Positions 1-7,767 of a stretch of 64,000 nt of DNA are shown here, one piece after another. Under the pieces are notes generated by a model that was not told the origin of the DNA, made no database searches, and saw nothing but the letters and a program-made list of their open reading frames with translations. Position 1 is the first letter of the stretch. Each line of letters opens with the position of its first letter. Both the position numbers and the translations under genes were made by a program. Source of the stretch: Bacteroidota bacterium (lineage in GTDB: Bacteria; Bacteroidota; Bacteroidia; B-17B0; Aurantibacillaceae); assembly GCA_963169355.1 (NCBI GenBank), contig CAUJCR010000034.1, positions 1 to 64,000 of the forward strand. The letters run 5' to 3'.

Positions 1-79
1 CAAAAAATAAGCACTATCTGTTTTTATATTTTGTTTTTGACCTTGTTTCATTAACTTTACTTAAAGTAATAGCTAATTT

Positions 80-343
80 ATGATATTTACTAATAAATTA
101 CAATTTCAATTGCCGCAGCATTACAAATGCAGCGGAGCGGGCGTTTCACTCTCTGAACTGTTCGCCACTACTGACGAGATTAAAGAGGTAAACTCCCACG
201 ATAAAACGGTAATGGAAAAAGTGAGCCTGATTGAGAGCCTGAACGATGATGAAAAAAATACCCTTTACAGTATGCTCGATGCCTTTATCGGCAAGCGAAA
301 ACTAAAGGATGCTCTTTCTAATGTATTGCAAGATGTAAAATGA
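80..343 (+). pseudogene. Truncated XRE-family regulator (C-terminal part only)
   Basis: The 87-residue frame ends like many Bacteroidota XRE/HTH_3 regulators: a 'SLSELFATTDE' stretch, then 'DKTVMEKVSLIESLNDDEK' and a basic helix (GKRKLKDALSNVL). In the family these follow an N-terminal helix-turn-helix. That domain is absent here: an in-frame stop lies at 74-76, two codons before the ATG, and the first 15 or so residues look unrelated. The coding DNA is about 45-50% G+C by eye, well above the rest of the window, which suggests foreign origin. It overlaps the next gene by 4 bases. Family assignment is from memory of the C-terminal pattern. It could still be expressed, but it should not bind DNA as a normal regulator. 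Confidence 0.55.
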
Positions 344-657: not shown

Positions 658-1089
658 TTACTTATTCAGGAACTCCTTGTAAGCCTCTTTGATTTTCTGG
701 ATTATTTCATCACTCGCATCAATGGAACCCAAGTTCTTTTTTTGCTCGGCATAAAGGTCTATTAACTCCTGTTTTTCTTTAGGATGAGATTTCCAATAGT
801 TCGGTTCATTATTGATTAAAAATAAAGAACAAAGCAAGTCGCCTGGATAGTTTTCAACTTCTAAGAATAAGTTCTCTGTCAATTTTTTAATTCCTATCGG
901 AACTATAAATTGTAATCCAGAATTTTCAAGAATTAGGAAATAAATGTCAGATAGGTCAAGTTGTTCAATGGGTTTGTCATGAAGCATATAAAATCTATAT
1001 TCGGTACTCCAGTCATCCTCTCTTGGAATATTACCTTTCCACTTCCATCCCTCTAATTCACTAATACTTTTACTGAGAATTTTTTCCAT
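658..1089 (-). CDS. Immunity protein, CdiI-like, for the adjacent polymorphic toxin
   Basis: The product has 143 residues. Its layout matches the contact-dependent inhibition immunity family I know as CdiI_3: an N-terminal 'KSISELEGWKWKG', a middle 'KPIEQLDLSDIYFLI' with 'GLQFIVPIGIKKL', then 'ENYPGDLLCSLFLI' and 'YWKSHPKEKQELIDLY'. Proteins of this family bind and neutralise the C-terminal toxin domain encoded just upstream. Here the ATG starts five bases after the stop of the Ntox28-like toxin frame, the classical toxin-immunity order. It is intact, unlike the toxin gene. It may be kept for protection against toxins delivered by siblings. The family call is by pattern memory. Confidence 0.65.
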   Translation of the reverse strand: MEKILSKSISELEGWKWKGNIPREDDWSTEYRFYMLHDKPIEQLDLSDIYFLILENSGLQFIVPIGIKKLTENLFLEVENYPGDLLCSLFLINNEPNYWKSHPKEKQELIDLYAEQKKNLGSIDASDEIIQKIKEAYKEFLNK

Positions 1090-1094
1090 TTTAT

Positions 1095-1742
1095 TTAAAA
1101 ATTGCTTGCTGCCTTCTTGGCACTGTTTAATGTATTTGATATGTCATTATATTGTTTAGTGACATCATTTAATATACCCTGTGCTGCCTTTAATGCATCT
1201 CCTTCAAATGCCCCAGCTTTAATTTGTTTTGTGAGGTTGTCTATTTGAGTTTTCATACCGCTAAGCGCTTCTGTAGCCTTTTTTAAATGTTGATAAGGTG
1301 TGCCATCCGCTTTAACACCACTTTTTAAACCATATATTTCCTTAACTGCACCCGCTAAATCATCTTCTTCTAATCCTCTAGCTTGATTATTAAACTTCTT
1401 GGTAAAGTCTGCAACCAAATCAGAGCCTTTGCCCATTACTTTATTAGGTCCAAGTTTTTTAAACGCTTGTCCTGCTGCTTTTCCTGCCCATTCGGTAACG
1501 CTTTCAAACTTCTTGGTTATTTTATATACTGCATATCCTTGGTCGCCCAATTTATAAGCCCCGTAAGCATCTCCCGCAATAGGTATAACTTCAATTGCAT
1601 ATTCCCACCATGATTGGGAAGTAGCTATATCAATAGCATCTAAAGCATCTCCAGCTAATTGTTTTGCCCAACTCTTAGACATATATGCTTTTAATCGATT
1701 CTTTATAGCAGCCTCAACTGTTTCTTTAGCTGCTTTTTTCAA
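1095..1742 (-). CDS. Polymorphic toxin C-terminal tip, Ntox28-like, separated from its RHS core by an amber stop
   Basis: The frame reads 215 residues from a TTG. It continues the frame of the RHS core upstream; only TAG at 1746-1748 and one Gly codon lie between. The first 100 or so residues are an RHS-to-toxin linker (GLKKAAKETVEAAIKNR, then IPIAGDAYGAYK). The last 90 are a predicted all-helical domain with 'GVKADGTPYQHLKKATEAL' and 'QIDNLTKQI', which resembles bacterial toxin 28 (Ntox28), a predicted nuclease family. An immunity gene follows. Without readthrough or reinitiation at the TTG, the toxin could not be delivered attached to an RHS shell. It could be a decayed remnant or a displaced tip cassette. 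Confidence 0.6.
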   Translation of the reverse strand: MKKAAKETVEAAIKNRLKAYMSKSWAKQLAGDALDAIDIATSQSWWEYAIEVIPIAGDAYGAYKLGDQGYAVYKITKKFESVTEWAGKAAGQAFKKLGPNKVMGKGSDLVADFTKKFNNQARGLEEDDLAGAVKEIYGLKSGVKADGTPYQHLKKATEALSGMKTQIDNLTKQIKAGAFEGDALKAAQGILNDVTKQYNDISNTLNSAKKAASNF

Positions 1743-1745
1743 ACC

Positions 1746-2171
1746 CTACTTTGCTACTTGCTTTGCAAAAATTGAAATAGGACTTTCACCATCAGGGTCA
1801 GTAAAGAAATTCGGATTGTTATTAAAAACAGCATAACCAGAAATGTCATGCAGAATAATAGGATCTATTTGCCATCTTCTTCCAATCCTTGGATCATATC
1901 CATAATCCCCAAAAGACAAGTGATTTCCGCTTCCTTTTATTTCGTCATCCTTTTCATGTCCGTTAAACCCGAAACGATAGTTCCCACTATTAAACTGCCT
2001 ACCTGGCATTGGGCTACCAAAGGCGTAATAATCAGTTGAGCTTATCACATCGGGTAGGTAGTAATCGGTTATAAAATCGTTATTGGCATCTACAGGTATT
2101 TTGCGGTCGGAGATAACAGTAAGTACATTCCCTAAATGGTTGCTTAGTTCGTATGGGCTTACTCGTTTCAT
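1746..2171 (-). pseudogene. RHS repeat-associated core domain fragment, 5'-truncated
   Basis: The frame carries the conserved RHS core that precedes toxin tips: 'YELSNHLGNVLTVISDRK', 'DYYAFGSPMPGR', 'YRFGFNGHEKDDE', 'YGYDPRIGRRWQIDP' and 'PNFFTDPDGESP'. Complete RHS proteins have well over a thousand residues and a signal or delivery domain. Here only about 140 residues remain. I place the start at the ATG at 2171 (MKRVSPYELSN). An ATG at 2198 in the same frame lies inside the secDF terminator hairpin, so its extra residues are artefact. The frame ends at TAG 1746-1748, where homologues typically read through into the toxin linker. This makes it a pseudogene or orphan tip fragment. Confidence 0.8.
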
Positions 2172-2182
2172 TAAGTAAATAT

Positions 2183-2224
2183 AAAAAAAACGCTCCAAAA
2201 TTTTAGAAAATTTGGAGCGTTTTA
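2183..2224 (-). terminator. Rho-independent terminator of secDF
   Basis: A 10-bp stem (ACGCTCCAAA pairing with TTTGGAGCGT, 2190-2199 and 2211-2220) with A/T-rich extension on both sides forms a strong hairpin 18 bases after the secDF stop. It is flanked by A8 and TTT runs, so it can work in both directions. The RHS fragment begins right next to it. Confidence 0.85.
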
Positions 2225-2241: not shown

Positions 2242-5200
2242 TTATTTTTTCTTATCAAAATCAACCACAATTGGTGTTGAGATACATAATGATGAGTAAG
2301 TACCAATAATACGACCAATTAATAAGGCAAATATAAACCCTCTAATACTTTCTCCACCAAAAATAAAGATAACAATTAATACAAAGAATACGGTTAACGA
2401 AGTTAAAATAGTACGGCTTAAGGTGCTATTTAAAGCGTAATTAATTAAAGTATTATGCTCTTCTTCGGTTTCATCGGCTTTGCTATCTTCGGCAAGGCGT
2501 TCACGAATACGGTCAAATACTACCACAGTTTCCGTCATGGTATAACCCATTACCGTTAATATGGCGGCAATAAAATCCTGACCTATTTCTAACGAGAATG
2601 GCACTACACCTTCTAGTATGGTGTAAAAAGACAATACAATTAACACGTCGTGAAACAAGGCTACTACAGCTCCTAAACCATATTGCCATTTTTTAAATCG
2701 TACTACAATGTATATAAACATTACTAAGCACGAGAATAAAATTGCGGCATAAGCTCCGTATAAAATATCAGTAGCAATAGTTGGTCCTACTTTTTGTTGG
2801 CTTACCAAATCGTGTTTTACTTGCAAAGTATTTAAACCATCATTTAAAGCTTTTTCTACTTCAGTATCTACGGTTGGCGAGTTATCACTTACACGATACG
2901 AAGTAGTAATTTTCATTTGATGGCTACCACCAACCGTTTTTACTTCTAACGAAGCATCTTTAAAGGCATCTTTTAAAGCATGTTTCACATCTTCGGTATT
3001 CATTTCTTTATCAAAACGAACCATGTAAGTACGTCCACCTTTAAAATCAACACCTAATTTTAATCCGCCATTTACAAAATACATAATTGTACCTGCAATA
3101 ATAATTACCGACGAAATGGTATAATATAATTTACGACGTCCTACAAAGTTAATAGCTACTTCTTTAAATGAATTGCGAGTTACATTATTATCAAATGGAA
3201 TCTCCATTTTACGGCTCAACATCCAATCAAAAATTAAACGTGTAATTAAAATAGCCGAGAATAATGAAGCGCCAATACCAATTAATAAAGTAGTGGCAAA
3301 ACCTTGCACAGGTCCCGAACCAAATACCATTAAGATAATAGCTAAAATAGCCAAGGTAACGTTCGAGTCAATAATAGAACTCATGGCGTGTTTAAAACCC
3401 TCGTTAATAGCTTGCGCTGTTGTTCTACCTTGCGCTAATTCCTCACGCACCCTTTCAAATATTAAGATGTTGGCATCTACCGCCAAACCAATGGTTAACA
3501 CAATACCTGCAATACCTGGTAAGGTAAGCACAGCATTCATCGAACTTAATATACCCATTATAAAAAACATATTGGCTACCAATGCTACATTGGCTACCAT
3601 ACCTGCTTTGTTATAGTACATATACATAAATACTAAAATAACTAATAAGGCTACCATAGTACTTGTTAAACCTGAGTCAATGGCCTCTTGCCCTAATGTA
3701 GGACCTACCACGCTTTCTTCAACAATACGAGCAGGCGCAGGTAATTTACCAGCACTTAATACAGCGGCTAAAGCTTCGGCTTCTTCTACGGTAAAGTTAC
3801 CTGTAATTTGAGAGTTACCGCCTTTAATTTCGCCATTTACAGTAGGTGCCGAGTAAACCATGTTATCCATTACCACAGCAATTGAGCGACCTTTTTTATC
3901 GCCTTGAGGTGCATTTTCTCTAGTAAGCTTTGCCCATTTTTGAGCAGCTTCACCAGTCATGCTCATGCTAATGTATGGGTGACCACCACTTTGTGCATCA
4001 AAATCTTTTCTTGCATCGGTAATAATATCGCCATACATAGCAGCTTTACCATTGCGGTCGGTTACTTTTATAGCATATAATTCGTAATACACACCTATCA
4101 CATCACCCGATTCGTTTTTAACCTCTTCGGGTTTAGCACCCCACATAAATTTAAGTTTTTTAGGTAAAAACGATTTTAATGCTGGATGCCTTAATAATTC
4201 ATTCGCCTTTGCCGTATCTTCTTTGCTATATGCACGCGCTACAACTGGCCCCGGTAAAAACTGCTCGGGTTGTTGAGTTTGCTGGTTATACGACACATTA
4301 GCTTTTAAAGGACTTGGCGTATTACCCACATATATTAATGGGAAACGCATGTTAAACGAATCTAAGGCTGTTAATTTTACTTTGTTATTTACTGTTTTAG
4401 TAGCTAACGAATCGCTCGTTTTAGTTAAGCTATCAACCGCTGCCGAAGCTACTTTATTAGTATCGGCTGGTGTAGTTGTTTTAGTAGAATCGGTAGCTAC
4501 TGTATTGGTTGTATCCGATTTAAAATCAAAATTAGGATATAATGCTTTCGATAATTTAGTGTTGGCTTCAATTAATAAATTACCTAACTCGGTATTATCG
4601 TAAGTTTCCCAAAACTCAAGATTTGCAGTTCCTTGTAATAATTCACGTACACGCTCTTTATCTTTTACCCCTGGTAGTTCTACTAAAATACGCCCGCTAT
4701 TACCCAATTTTTGGATATTAGGTTGAGCAACCCCAAAACGGTCGATACGAGAACGGAACGTTTTTTCGGAGTTAGAAATTGATTCATCTACTTTTTCGCG
4801 AATAAATTTAATAACCTCTTCGTTAGAAGCATTGTAATCAATTTTACCTTTAAGCTCAATAGTTTGAAACAAAGGCGCTAAACGACCATTAGGTGCATTT
4901 TCTTTATATTTTTTTGCAAACAAGGTAAGGTAATCGTCATTGTTTCCAACACCCAAGCTGTTTTGAGCATCTTCTAACGATTTTTTAAATAATGGGTCTT
5001 GATTATCATTCGACATGTTTTTTACAATGTCTTTTACAGATATTTCAAGCGTTACGTTCATACCACCACGTAAGTCTAAGCCTAAGTTAATTTCACGACG
5101 TTTACACTCATCGTAAGTATAACTTGCAATTAATAAGTCATACACTGGTTGGTTTTTCACCGAATCTAAATAACGATCGGCTAATTTTTCTTTTAAAGAA

Positions 5201-5403
5201 TCTAAGTAAAACGACTCTTTAGTAGCATCGCCATTAGCGTATTTTTTGGCGTTGGCTTGCACCGCAGCCGATTCTAAAAGACTAGTGGCATACTCGTTAG
5301 CATCTGATTCAACGCCACGGGTAACCCATGTAAACGATAAATAAAAAATACAAGCTAAAGCTAATAATATAGCAAAAATTTTAATGGCACCTTTGTTTTG
5401 CAT
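2242..5403 (-). CDS. secDF: Protein translocase subunit SecDF (fused)
   Basis: This is an inner-membrane export factor that uses the proton gradient to help the SecYEG channel pull proteins across. At 1053 residues it is the fused SecD-SecF form common in Bacteroidota. The N-terminal membrane segment is at about 7-27. The SecD signature 'INLGLDLRGGMNVTLEI' follows near residue 105, then the periplasmic domain with 'RILVELPGVKD', a Thr/Ser/Ala-rich linker near 300-345, and six SecD membrane helices. The SecF half starts near residue 750 (RRKLYYTISSVIIIAG) with 'LGVDFKGGRTYMVRF' and ends in its own helices with a DFDKKK tail. It is a single-gene unit with a clear promoter upstream and a terminator downstream. 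Confidence 0.97.
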   Translation of the reverse strand: MQNKGAIKIFAILLALACIFYLSFTWVTRGVESDANEYATSLLESAAVQANAKKYANGDATKESFYLDSLKEKLADRYLDSVKNQPVYDLLIASYTYDECKRREINLGLDLRGGMNVTLEISVKDIVKNMSNDNQDPLFKKSLEDAQNSLGVGNNDDYLTLFAKKYKENAPNGRLAPLFQTIELKGKIDYNASNEEVIKFIREKVDESISNSEKTFRSRIDRFGVAQPNIQKLGNSGRILVELPGVKDKERVRELLQGTANLEFWETYDNTELGNLLIEANTKLSKALYPNFDFKSDTTNTVATDSTKTTTPADTNKVASAAVDSLTKTSDSLATKTVNNKVKLTALDSFNMRFPLIYVGNTPSPLKANVSYNQQTQQPEQFLPGPVVARAYSKEDTAKANELLRHPALKSFLPKKLKFMWGAKPEEVKNESGDVIGVYYELYAIKVTDRNGKAAMYGDIITDARKDFDAQSGGHPYISMSMTGEAAQKWAKLTRENAPQGDKKGRSIAVVMDNMVYSAPTVNGEIKGGNSQITGNFTVEEAEALAAVLSAGKLPAPARIVEESVVGPTLGQEAIDSGLTSTMVALLVILVFMYMYYNKAGMVANVALVANMFFIMGILSSMNAVLTLPGIAGIVLTIGLAVDANILIFERVREELAQGRTTAQAINEGFKHAMSSIIDSNVTLAILAIILMVFGSGPVQGFATTLLIGIGASLFSAILITRLIFDWMLSRKMEIPFDNNVTRNSFKEVAINFVGRRKLYYTISSVIIIAGTIMYFVNGGLKLGVDFKGGRTYMVRFDKEMNTEDVKHALKDAFKDASLEVKTVGGSHQMKITTSYRVSDNSPTVDTEVEKALNDGLNTLQVKHDLVSQQKVGPTIATDILYGAYAAILFSCLVMFIYIVVRFKKWQYGLGAVVALFHDVLIVLSFYTILEGVVPFSLEIGQDFIAAILTVMGYTMTETVVVFDRIRERLAEDSKADETEEEHNTLINYALNSTLSRTILTSLTVFFVLIVIFIFGGESIRGFIFALLIGRIIGTYSSLCISTPIVVDFDKKK

Positions 5404-5436
5404 AAAAATGATATTTGTTCAATAAAATTAAGGGTG

Positions 5437-5468
5437 CAAATATAATGTACCGTTACATATAAAACAAA
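5437..5468 (-). promoter_or_regulatory. secDF promoter (TTTG-N20-TATATTTG)
   Basis: On the minus strand a -33 TTTG (5465-5468) is followed after 20 bases by the Bacteroidota -7 box TATATTTG (5437-5444), 33 bases before the secDF ATG. The spacer holds an ATGTA/TACAT inverted repeat that could be a protein-binding site. Confidence 0.7.
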
Positions 5469-5522
5469 TAAATTTAACATTGATAATTAAGTAGTTAGCT
5501 ATTTTTACTCTAATTTAATTCG

Positions 5523-5530
5523 TATTTTTG
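5523..5530 (+). promoter_or_regulatory. -7 box TATTTTTG next to a start codon
   Basis: TATTTTTG lies only five bases before the ATG at 5536. Transcription from such a box starts a few bases downstream, so the mRNA would have almost no leader. The -33 element is weak. Confidence 0.5.
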
Positions 5531-5535
5531 AGCCT

Positions 5536-7767
5536 ATGACAAGATGTGTACTTATTATTGGCTTTTTAGTTTTAGGATTTGTTTTACAGGCTCAAAACCT
5601 AGTTTACCGAGATACAACGCCTGCAGTTTTTGAAAATGGTGTTAAACTAAAAATGCCTTGGGCAGGCGGAATTAATTTTGCATCGTTTACACCTATTGAT
5701 TTAAACGCCGATGGAAAATTAGATCTTGCCGCTTTTGATAAAATAAGTGGTTCGGGCGGAAAACTAAGAACCTACTTAAATGTGGGTGGCACGGGCGAAG
5801 CTAAATATTTACACAGTTTTACGTATCAAGAAGATTTTCCAGCTGTTACCGATTGGGCACTTTTTTTTGATTATAATTATGATGGCAAAGCCGATTTGTT
5901 TACCTACACCACAGGTGGTATTAAGGTTTTTAAAAACACATCAAATGGCGCTACGCTTTCGTTTCAATTAGAAAAATCGTTATTAAGAAGTAATTATAAC
6001 CCTGGCGGTCCTACACCTAATTATAGCAACATACCTGTTATAACCGTGGGCATACCAGGCATAGCCGATTTAGATAATGATGGCGACTTAGATATTTTAA
6101 CCTTTTCTTACACCGGAGTAAGAGTTGAATTTCATAAAAATATGAGTCAAGAAAAATACGGTGTAGCAGATAGTTTAGTGTTTGATATGGTAGATAATTG
6201 TTGGGGCGATTTTCAAGAAAGTTCTTGCATGGTAGATTTAAACATGTGCCCGTTTATGAAACAATACCAACAAGCCATTGAGGCAAATCCCAATAAGGTA
6301 CTACATGCAGGCTCGTGCATTATGTGTTTTGATAGAGATGGCGATGGCGATCAAGAATTATTATTAGGTGATGTATCTTGTAATCATCCTATTTTTGTAT
6401 CTAACGAGGGCAGCACTAGTAATGCACATATTGGCGATACCACAGCGTTATACCCAAATTATCCAAACAAAGCCTCTACCAATGTCATTCGTTTTAATAC
6501 ATTTCCTTGCTCGTATCATTTAGATATTAATAATGATGGTGCTAAAGATTTAATTGTAACTCCCAACTCCATATCGGGTGCCGAAAATTACCAAAGTGTG
6601 TGGTACTACCAAAATACCTCTACAACACCTACCGTTAATTTTGTATATCAACAAAATAATTTTTTACAAGATAATATGATTGAGTTAGGCGAAGGCGCCT
6701 ACCCTGTTTTGTTTGATGCGGATGCCGATGGGAAAAAAGATTTAATAATTGGCAACCTTGGTTATTTTACTGTAAACACCAATAAGTCTAAATTAGCGTA
6801 TTATAAAAACATAGGTACCAATGCATCGCCATCGTTTTCATTAATTACTCGCGATTATCAAAACCTTTCGAGCTACAACATTTTTTCAATGGCTCCCACC
6901 TTTGGTGATTTAGACGGCGATGGCGACCAAGATTTAATAATAGGTGGCAACAATGGTCGGGTACATTATTTTGAAAACACTGCTGGCGCTGGTAATGCTG
7001 CAGTATTTAGCAACTATACCGCCAATTATCAAAACATATTAGGTAACAATTTAGTATATCCGCAGTTGTTTGACGTGGATAATAATGGCACTTTAGATTT
7101 ATTGTTAGGCTCCTTAAATGGTAAACTCATTTATTACCAAAACATAGGTACAACCACAACGCCTACCTTTACATTAGTGTCAAATAATTTTGGTAATGTG
7201 GATGTACGACAATTAAGCATTGGAGCTACTACAGGATACAGTACGCCTTATATGTTCAGAGATGCAGGCGTTACAAAGCTGCTAGTAGGTTGCGAAGTAG
7301 GTAGCATTTACTTATACGATAATATTGATGGAAACTTAAATGGCACTTTTCAAAAAGTAGATACCATGTTGTATGGTATTAACGAAGGAACCCGCAGCGC
7401 ACCTTGTTACGAAGATATTACAAGCGATGGTAAGCGCGATTTATTGGTAGGAAATTATTCGGGTGGTGTTGCCTTTTTTAATTCAACCAATGTGAGCATG
7501 GTAAATGTAAAAGAAACATTTTATGAAAACGAGGTAGTGGTTTTTCCTAATCCAGCTAATCAAGTGGTTAATATTTCTATCAACAACCATCAAATAGAAA
7601 CGCTTAACATTTCGTGTGTAGATATGTTAGGAAAAACCATTAAACAATGGGAAAGTCAACAAAAACATATCACACTAGATGTTTCAACCTTAGTAAAAGG
7701 CATTTATTTTATATTAATCAGTAACCCATCAGGAGTTACCATTAGTAAAAAAATAATAATAGATTAA
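5536..7767 (+). CDS. Secreted FG-GAP/VCBS repeat protein with T9SS type A sorting domain
   Basis: The 743-residue product has a signal peptide (cleavage near 'GFVLQAQ', residue 20) followed by about nine FG-GAP/VCBS repeats with Asp-rich calcium-binding loops, such as DLNADGKLDL, DYNYDGKADL, DLDNDGDLDI, DRDGDGDQEL, DINNDGAKDL, DADADGKKDL and DLDGDGDQDL. These build a beta-propeller. The last 85 or so residues ('VVVFPNPANQVVNISI' through 'LVKGIYFILIS') are a type A C-terminal sorting domain that sends proteins through the type IX secretion system to the cell surface. The binding partner or substrate cannot be read from the sequence. It sits alone, divergent from secDF and convergent with the next gene. 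Confidence 0.93.
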   Translation: MTRCVLIIGFLVLGFVLQAQNLVYRDTTPAVFENGVKLKMPWAGGINFASFTPIDLNADGKLDLAAFDKISGSGGKLRTYLNVGGTGEAKYLHSFTYQEDFPAVTDWALFFDYNYDGKADLFTYTTGGIKVFKNTSNGATLSFQLEKSLLRSNYNPGGPTPNYSNIPVITVGIPGIADLDNDGDLDILTFSYTGVRVEFHKNMSQEKYGVADSLVFDMVDNCWGDFQESSCMVDLNMCPFMKQYQQAIEANPNKVLHAGSCIMCFDRDGDGDQELLLGDVSCNHPIFVSNEGSTSNAHIGDTTALYPNYPNKASTNVIRFNTFPCSYHLDINNDGAKDLIVTPNSISGAENYQSVWYYQNTSTTPTVNFVYQQNNFLQDNMIELGEGAYPVLFDADADGKKDLIIGNLGYFTVNTNKSKLAYYKNIGTNASPSFSLITRDYQNLSSYNIFSMAPTFGDLDGDGDQDLIIGGNNGRVHYFENTAGAGNAAVFSNYTANYQNILGNNLVYPQLFDVDNNGTLDLLLGSLNGKLIYYQNIGTTTTPTFTLVSNNFGNVDVRQLSIGATTGYSTPYMFRDAGVTKLLVGCEVGSIYLYDNIDGNLNGTFQKVDTMLYGINEGTRSAPCYEDITSDGKRDLLVGNYSGGVAFFNSTNVSMVNVKETFYENEVVVFPNPANQVVNISINNHQIETLNISCVDMLGKTIKQWESQQKHITLDVSTLVKGIYFILISNPSGVTISKKIIID

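What the first reader, a model, noticed from the sequence alone, without database searches (positions are those of the whole stretch)
1740..1750. Single amber codon splits an RHS toxin gene
The RHS core frame and the Ntox28-like toxin frame are the same frame, separated only by TAG at 1746-1748 and one Gly codon. The residues on both sides (QVAK / GLKKAAKE) read like the usual RHS-to-toxin junction, so one base change (for example CAG to TAG) would explain the break. The immunity gene behind it is intact. This could be a decayed weapon, a readthrough switch, or a way to keep immunity while silencing the toxin.
Basis: partly seen in the sequence, partly recalled or inferred. Interest (0 to 1): 0.6.

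Follow-up and report, generated by a model that had tools for sequence, protein, structure and literature searches.

The report
Stop-broken spare toxin cassette
A bacterium of the Bacteroidota carries a short spare tip of a toxin-delivery gene, with its antidote, in which a single stop codon cuts the delivery tip from the toxin; similar spare cassettes and occasional stop mutations in them are known, so this is most likely an ordinary, fairly recent loss of function.

Summary
A TAG at 1746-1748 (minus strand) separates an RHS-core frame from an Ntox28 toxin frame in the same phase, and an intact CdiI_3-type immunity gene follows. The only relative found (a Crocinitomicaceae MAG, 55% identical toxin) has one continuous gene with one ordinary residue at the stop and no indel, so this was one gene. 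But it is not a full RHS gene. It is an orphan cassette of only 141 RHS residues behind secDF. Two more orphans in the genome share its 5' edge (terminator-like hairpin, then ATG), and one contig holds eight orphans of another type. Amber recoding is not supported: RF1 is present, no CUA tRNA was among the 30 found, and similar splits in other genomes use TAA, TGA and TAG equally. Best reading: a young nonsense mutation in a stored toxin/immunity cassette, leaving the immunity gene and possibly a toxin with its own start. Orphan rhs modules, including one with an in-frame stop, are already published. In 272 tips surveyed, six single-stop splits all lie 3-34 codons after DPxG, none mid-toxin: suggestive, but small and partly selected. 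An assembly or sequencing error cannot be excluded without reads.

The parts
1746..2171 (-). Orphan RHS tip: ATG to TAG, 141 codons of RHS-associated core ending DPDGESPISIFAKQVAK
   Evidence: TIGR03696; start shared with C1 and C54 copies
1746..1748 (-). In-frame TAG, 13 codons after DPDG
1095..1745 (-). Toxin frame behind the stop, 216 open codons; 55% identical over its length to the toxin part of L027
1215..1412 (-). Ntox28 (PF15605) match, residues 111-176 of the ORF that starts at 1742
1740..1742 (-). TTG two codons after the TAG, a possible restart codon (not shown to be used); first in-frame ATG at 1680-1682
   Evidence: inference
658..1089 (-). Immunity gene, CdiI_3 family, intact, 5 nt behind the toxin stop codon
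   Evidence: 34% identical to the partner gene in L027
2187..2223 (-). Strong hairpin followed by a T run, terminator-like, between secDF and the cassette; same hairpin in front of two other orphan cassettes
   Evidence: (z = -4.9)
1960..2224 (-). Stretch shared with the orphan cassette in C54 (93% over 265 nt; 94% over 224 nt with the C1 cassette)

Best explanation
This is an orphan (displaced, headless) RHS tip/toxin/immunity cassette in which a nonsense mutation arose fairly recently at the tip-toxin junction. Shown: the ancestral frame was continuous, the stop is a single codon, and the toxin and immunity frames are otherwise intact. Inferred: translation from the cassette's own start now ends just after the DPxG motif, so no tip-toxin fusion is made here, and recombination of this tip onto a full-length RHS gene would deliver a toxin-less tip. 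The immunity gene stays usable and can protect against siblings or competitors that carry the intact cassette. By homology to CdiA-CT of E. coli 536 the toxin would be an anticodon nuclease acting on bacteria.
For: Continuous homologue with one residue at the stop column. Orphan structure: 141 RHS codons behind secDF, with the same 5' edge at two other unrelated loci. The other long tip frames of the genome are open into their C-terminal domains. Immunity intact. RF1 present. Other junction splits use TAA, TGA and TAG. Toxin dN 0.38 vs dS about 1.6 against L027, so mostly purifying history. One new stop is expected per about 17 random substitutions in the toxin frame, so the lack of a second stop means a young stop or continued maintenance. 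Orphan modules kept for immunity or as a reserve, and one orphan rhs-CT with an in-frame stop, are published (PMC3150448; PMC4927057).
Against: No second strain of the species is held, so the age and reality of the stop are untested. The clustering of splits at the junction is not what uniform decay predicts, though numbers are small. The toxin frame shows no further decay.
Confidence: 0.66

Rival explanations
1. The stop separates tip and toxin usefully: the toxin is translated on its own from a start behind the TAG (TTG at 1740-1742 or ATG at 1680-1682) and forms a cytoplasmic toxin-antitoxin pair with the CdiI_3 protein.
For: Orphan Rhs toxins of Salmonella are made from internal starts and act as type II toxin-antitoxin modules (PMC7043789). 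Restart codons are near and the Ntox28 domain lies wholly behind both. The toxin frame is otherwise intact. All six splits found lie at the junction, before most of the toxin.
Against: No exact Bacteroidota-type promoter consensus in front of the cassette or the immunity gene. In the other splits the first start codon behind the stop is often far away (40, 67 and 75 codons), so there is no conserved restart architecture. A hairpin and T run isolates the cassette from secDF.
Confidence: 0.14
2. Assembly or sequencing error: the real gene has no stop.
For: The stop lies 1.7 kb from a contig end that is an assembly fork (window 1-141 is identical to the first 141 bases of C54). Orphan tips are repeated sequences in this genome.
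Against: The toxin side of the junction is single-copy in the genome, so cross-assembly at the TAG is unlikely, and single-base substitution errors in assembled short-read contigs are rare (general knowledge; the sequencing method of this genome is unknown).
Confidence: 0.12
3. Programmed readthrough or amber suppression makes some full tip-toxin fusion.
For: The frame continues without change; the stop is a single codon.
Against: RF1 present. No CUA anticodon among 30 tRNAs found (the list may be incomplete). The relative has a sense codon. Other splits use TAA and TGA as well.
Confidence: 0.03

Closest known systems
Orphan rhs-CT/rhsI modules (Salmonella LT2, Dickeya dadantii 3937, Yersinia pseudotuberculosis; PMC3150448, PMC3967940)
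   Same: Headless 3' fragment of an rhs gene with core sequence up to DPxG, a C-terminal toxin and a cognate immunity gene; one published orphan also has an in-frame stop in its retained rhs sequence.
   Different: Here the stop lies after DPxG, between tip and toxin; the orphan sits on a contig with no full-length rhs next to it and has its own shared hairpin/ATG 5' edge; Bacteroidota, not Enterobacterales.
CdiA-CT/CdiI of E. coli 536 (Ntox28 anticodon nuclease; PMC5562914, PMC4927057)
   Same: Toxin carries an Ntox28 match; the only solved-structure match of the immunity protein, though weak (E=0.1), is CdiI of 5j5v.
   Different: Attached to an RHS tip rather than CdiA; only 63 of 113 profile positions matched; nuclease activity untested.
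Orphan Rhs toxin-antitoxin modules of S. Typhimurium (PMC7043789)
   Same: Toxin and immunity without the delivery part, possible internal start.
   Different: No expression evidence here; the stop is the only hint of uncoupling.

Membership tests
Orphan rhs-CT/rhsI module | Fragment of an rhs gene keeping core sequence up to DPxG but lacking N-terminal shell/export region | tested here: met
   141 codons, TIGR03696 match, preceded by a terminator-like hairpin and secDF
Orphan rhs-CT/rhsI module | Toxin domain linked to cognate immunity gene | tested here: met
   Ntox28 and CdiI_3, same pairing in L027
Orphan rhs-CT/rhsI module | Intact (unbroken) tip-toxin frame; usual for members, though a published member has an in-frame stop, so not required | tested here: not met
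   TAG at 1746-1748; filed as a broken member, with the precedent in PMC3150448
Orphan rhs-CT/rhsI module | Near-identical core stretch shared with a full-length rhs, permitting recombination | tested here: inconclusive
   92% over 166 nt to the core/tip in C50 and 91% over 209 nt to that in C30; 97% over the last 60 nt of C8; but the C8 core frame is itself only about 449 codons and the assembly forks there
Ntox28 toxin (PF15605) | Score above Pfam gathering threshold | tested here: met
   29.2 vs 25 bits, profile 18-80 of 113
Ntox28 toxin (PF15605) | tRNA anticodon nuclease activity | not testable with these tools
   needs biochemistry; predicted model too uncertain (pLDDT 47)
Type II toxin-antitoxin module | Independent expression of toxin and antitoxin in the cell | not testable with these tools
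   no expression data; no exact promoter consensus
Stop-codon readthrough / amber recoding | Suppressor tRNA or missing RF1, or conserved stop at the position | tested here: not met
   RF1 present, no CUA among 30 tRNAs (possibly incomplete), stop not in L027

The most novel reading that the evidence does not exclude
Single stops of any kind at the tip-toxin junction of orphan RHS cassettes recur because they are selected: they uncouple the toxin from the delivery tip while keeping toxin and immunity frames intact, giving immunity-only or toxin-antitoxin-like cassettes held in reserve.
Probability: 0.1. Interest if true: 0.5.

Novelty: new member of a known kind. Interest (0 to 1): 0.27.

Why it matters
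It adds a Bacteroidota example to the orphan toxin/immunity cassettes known mainly from Enterobacterales, with the unusual pairing of Ntox28/CdiI_3 on an RHS tip. If the clustering of stops at the junction holds in a larger unselected sample, it would give a countable genomic test of whether orphan modules are kept for immunity, for toxin-antitoxin function, or as a reserve arsenal.

Tried and rejected
Amber reassignment: rejected (RF1 present, no CUA tRNA found, splits elsewhere use all stops). Two separate genes: rejected by the continuous homologue L027. A stop-codon hint in prfB was the normal UGA +1 frameshift site, not a TAG. Close relatives of the toxin: none in 86 other genomes of the family or in plasmids, one in the GTDB genome contigs. 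Immunity relatives at 30-37% identity in five genomes were not pursued. Structure models of toxin and immunity protein were of low confidence (pLDDT 47 and 52), so no fold search was made. The sigma-70 promoter scan found no more than chance. Solved-structure search with the toxin gave only chance hits. A first GC3 value for the tip was taken in the wrong frame and is not used; the corrected value is 0.32.

Full report
Observation. On the minus strand, codons for ...DPDGESPISIFAKQVAK are followed by TAG (1746-1748), GGT and TTG AAA AAA in one phase. The upstream frame matches the RHS-associated core (TIGR03696, E=9.6e-10), the downstream frame matches Ntox28 (PF15605, E=1.1e-6, above the gathering score), and the next gene, 5 nt behind the toxin stop, matches CdiI_3 (E=1.6e-14). 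Seven stops in the window have at least 100 open codons on both sides in frame; six of them are TAA, and this is the only TAG. Adjacency alone is therefore not evidence of a split gene.

Was it one gene? The toxin has no relative in the 86 other genomes of the family or in plasmids, and one in the GTDB genome contigs: L027, a Crocinitomicaceae MAG. There a single gene (4410-5663) runs from RHS core through DPDGESPISI... into the toxin, followed at once by a CdiI_3 relative. The pieces were aligned separately. The tip piece (57% identical) ends at the residue before, and the toxin piece (55% identical) begins at the residue after, the column of the window's stop, with exactly one ordinary residue between and no indel. 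So the window descends from a continuous gene. Synonymous divergence to L027 is near saturation (dS about 1.6 for the toxin) and dN is 0.38 for the toxin and 0.61 for the immunity gene, a history of purifying selection on both. This says little about the time since the stop arose.

What the RHS part is. It is not a full RHS gene. Only 141 codons stand between an ATG at 2169-2171 and the stop. Upstream lies a strong hairpin with a T run (-18 kcal/mol, z = -4.9) and then secDF. Two other places of the genome, C1:191353-191775 (downstream of an unidentified gene) and C54:1274-1693 (behind a gene that reads like ribonuclease Y, identified by eye only), carry RHS tips with the same 5' edge: hairpin, T run, TATATTTACTTAATGAAA(C/A)GAGTAAG, then TACGAACTAAGCAACC. 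A pattern search for the GGAGCG arm plus T run, allowing one mismatch, found these three places and two others (C6 and C28), which were not examined. C38 is an array of eight further tips with a different repeated 5' edge. C8 ends, and C30 and C50 begin, inside one RHS core with an identical 141-nt overlap, an unresolved assembly fork. The window's gene is thus one of several orphan tip/toxin cassettes, and the other long tip frames in the genome are open through the junction.

Recoding. RF1 is present (C15:3608-4666). None of the 30 tRNAs listed reads UAG; this list may be incomplete because some expected isoacceptors are missing from it. RF2 shows an ordinary UGA frameshift site. There is no support for amber readthrough.

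Are such splits common? In one search, 272 non-identical RHS tips from this family and from the wider class were measured from the DPxG motif to the first in-frame stop (regions). The median is 230-259 codons in the samples not chosen for short frames. Six tips are split by a single stop followed by at least 140 open codons in frame: window (+13, TAG), L159 (+3, TGA), L132 (+34, TGA), L278 (+3, TAA), L275 (+29, TAG) and L290 (+26, TAA). None is split at 35-150 with a long open frame behind. L275 and L278 come from regions chosen because their open frames were short, and the window was given; the other three come from about 260 tips not chosen that way. If stops fell evenly over the first 150 codons, three of three within 35 codons has a chance of about 0.013. 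The 35-codon bound was set after seeing the data, so I treat this as a lead. The distance from stop to first possible start varies from 0 to 75 codons, which gives no common restart design. Equal use of three stop codons argues for ordinary nonsense mutation.

Mechanism, shown and inferred. Shown: a continuous ancestral frame, a single stop, and intact frames on both sides with an intact immunity gene. Inferred: translation from the cassette's ATG ends before the toxin; the immunity protein can still be made; a recombinant that received this tip would be toxin-less. One new stop is expected per about 17 random substitutions in the toxin frame, so the clean frame means a young mutation or a maintained toxin with its own start. 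Orphan Rhs toxins with internal starts act as toxin-antitoxin pairs in Salmonella (PMC7043789), so this rival is real but untested here. Ntox28 toxins of E. coli 536 and EC93 are tRNases (PMC9990079, PMC4927057); the weak 5j5v match of the immunity protein (E=0.1) agrees with that family but proves nothing alone.

Relation to the literature. Orphan rhs-CT/rhsI and cdiA-CT/cdiI modules, their lack of start signals, their role as immunity store or reserve, and recombination with a main gene are described (PMC3150448, PMC3967940, PMC4927057). The legend of Figure 9 of PMC3150448 mentions an orphan rhs module of Yersinia pseudotuberculosis IP32953 with an in-frame stop in its retained rhs sequence, a direct precedent. 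The 2012 survey lists Ntox28 without Bacteroidota and without RHS repeats (PMC3482391), so the pairing here extends that list in a small way.

Limits. No reads, no second strain and no expression data are available, and the structure models were of low confidence. The TAG lies 1.7 kb from a contig end shared with C54, but the toxin side is single-copy in the genome.

Noticed in passing
window 2187-2223 and 1960-2224; same in G000 C1:191353-191777 and C54:1274-1700: Three orphan RHS tips at unrelated loci share a hairpin/T-run/ATG 5' edge, as if the edge travels with the cassette.
   Followed up: partly
L021 (G000:C38), all 17 kb: Array of eight orphan RHS tip/toxin cassettes, most with a repeated ~100-nt 5' edge ending GACCAT|GACCCGTTCGGGATG, several C-terminal domains looking unrelated to each other.
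   Followed up: partly
L159:285, L132:2879, L275, L278, L290: Other RHS tips in Bacteroidia with one in-frame stop 3-34 codons after DPxG and a long open frame behind it; TAA, TGA and TAG all occur.
   Followed up: partly
window 1-141; L020 1-141; L018 and L019 starts, L017 end: 141-nt identical contig ends: assembly forks at a repeat and inside an RHS core, so the main RHS gene with its alternative tips is unresolved.
   Followed up: partly
window about 98-130 (minus strand), L020, L018 (several copies), L019: REP-like palindrome CCCGCTCCGCTGsATTTGyAATsCTGCGGC lies 3' of several cassettes.
   Followed up: no
L027:464-6091: Crocinitomicaceae MAG has three tandem RHS tip cassettes with nearly identical 5' parts and different C-terminal domains.
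   Followed up: partly
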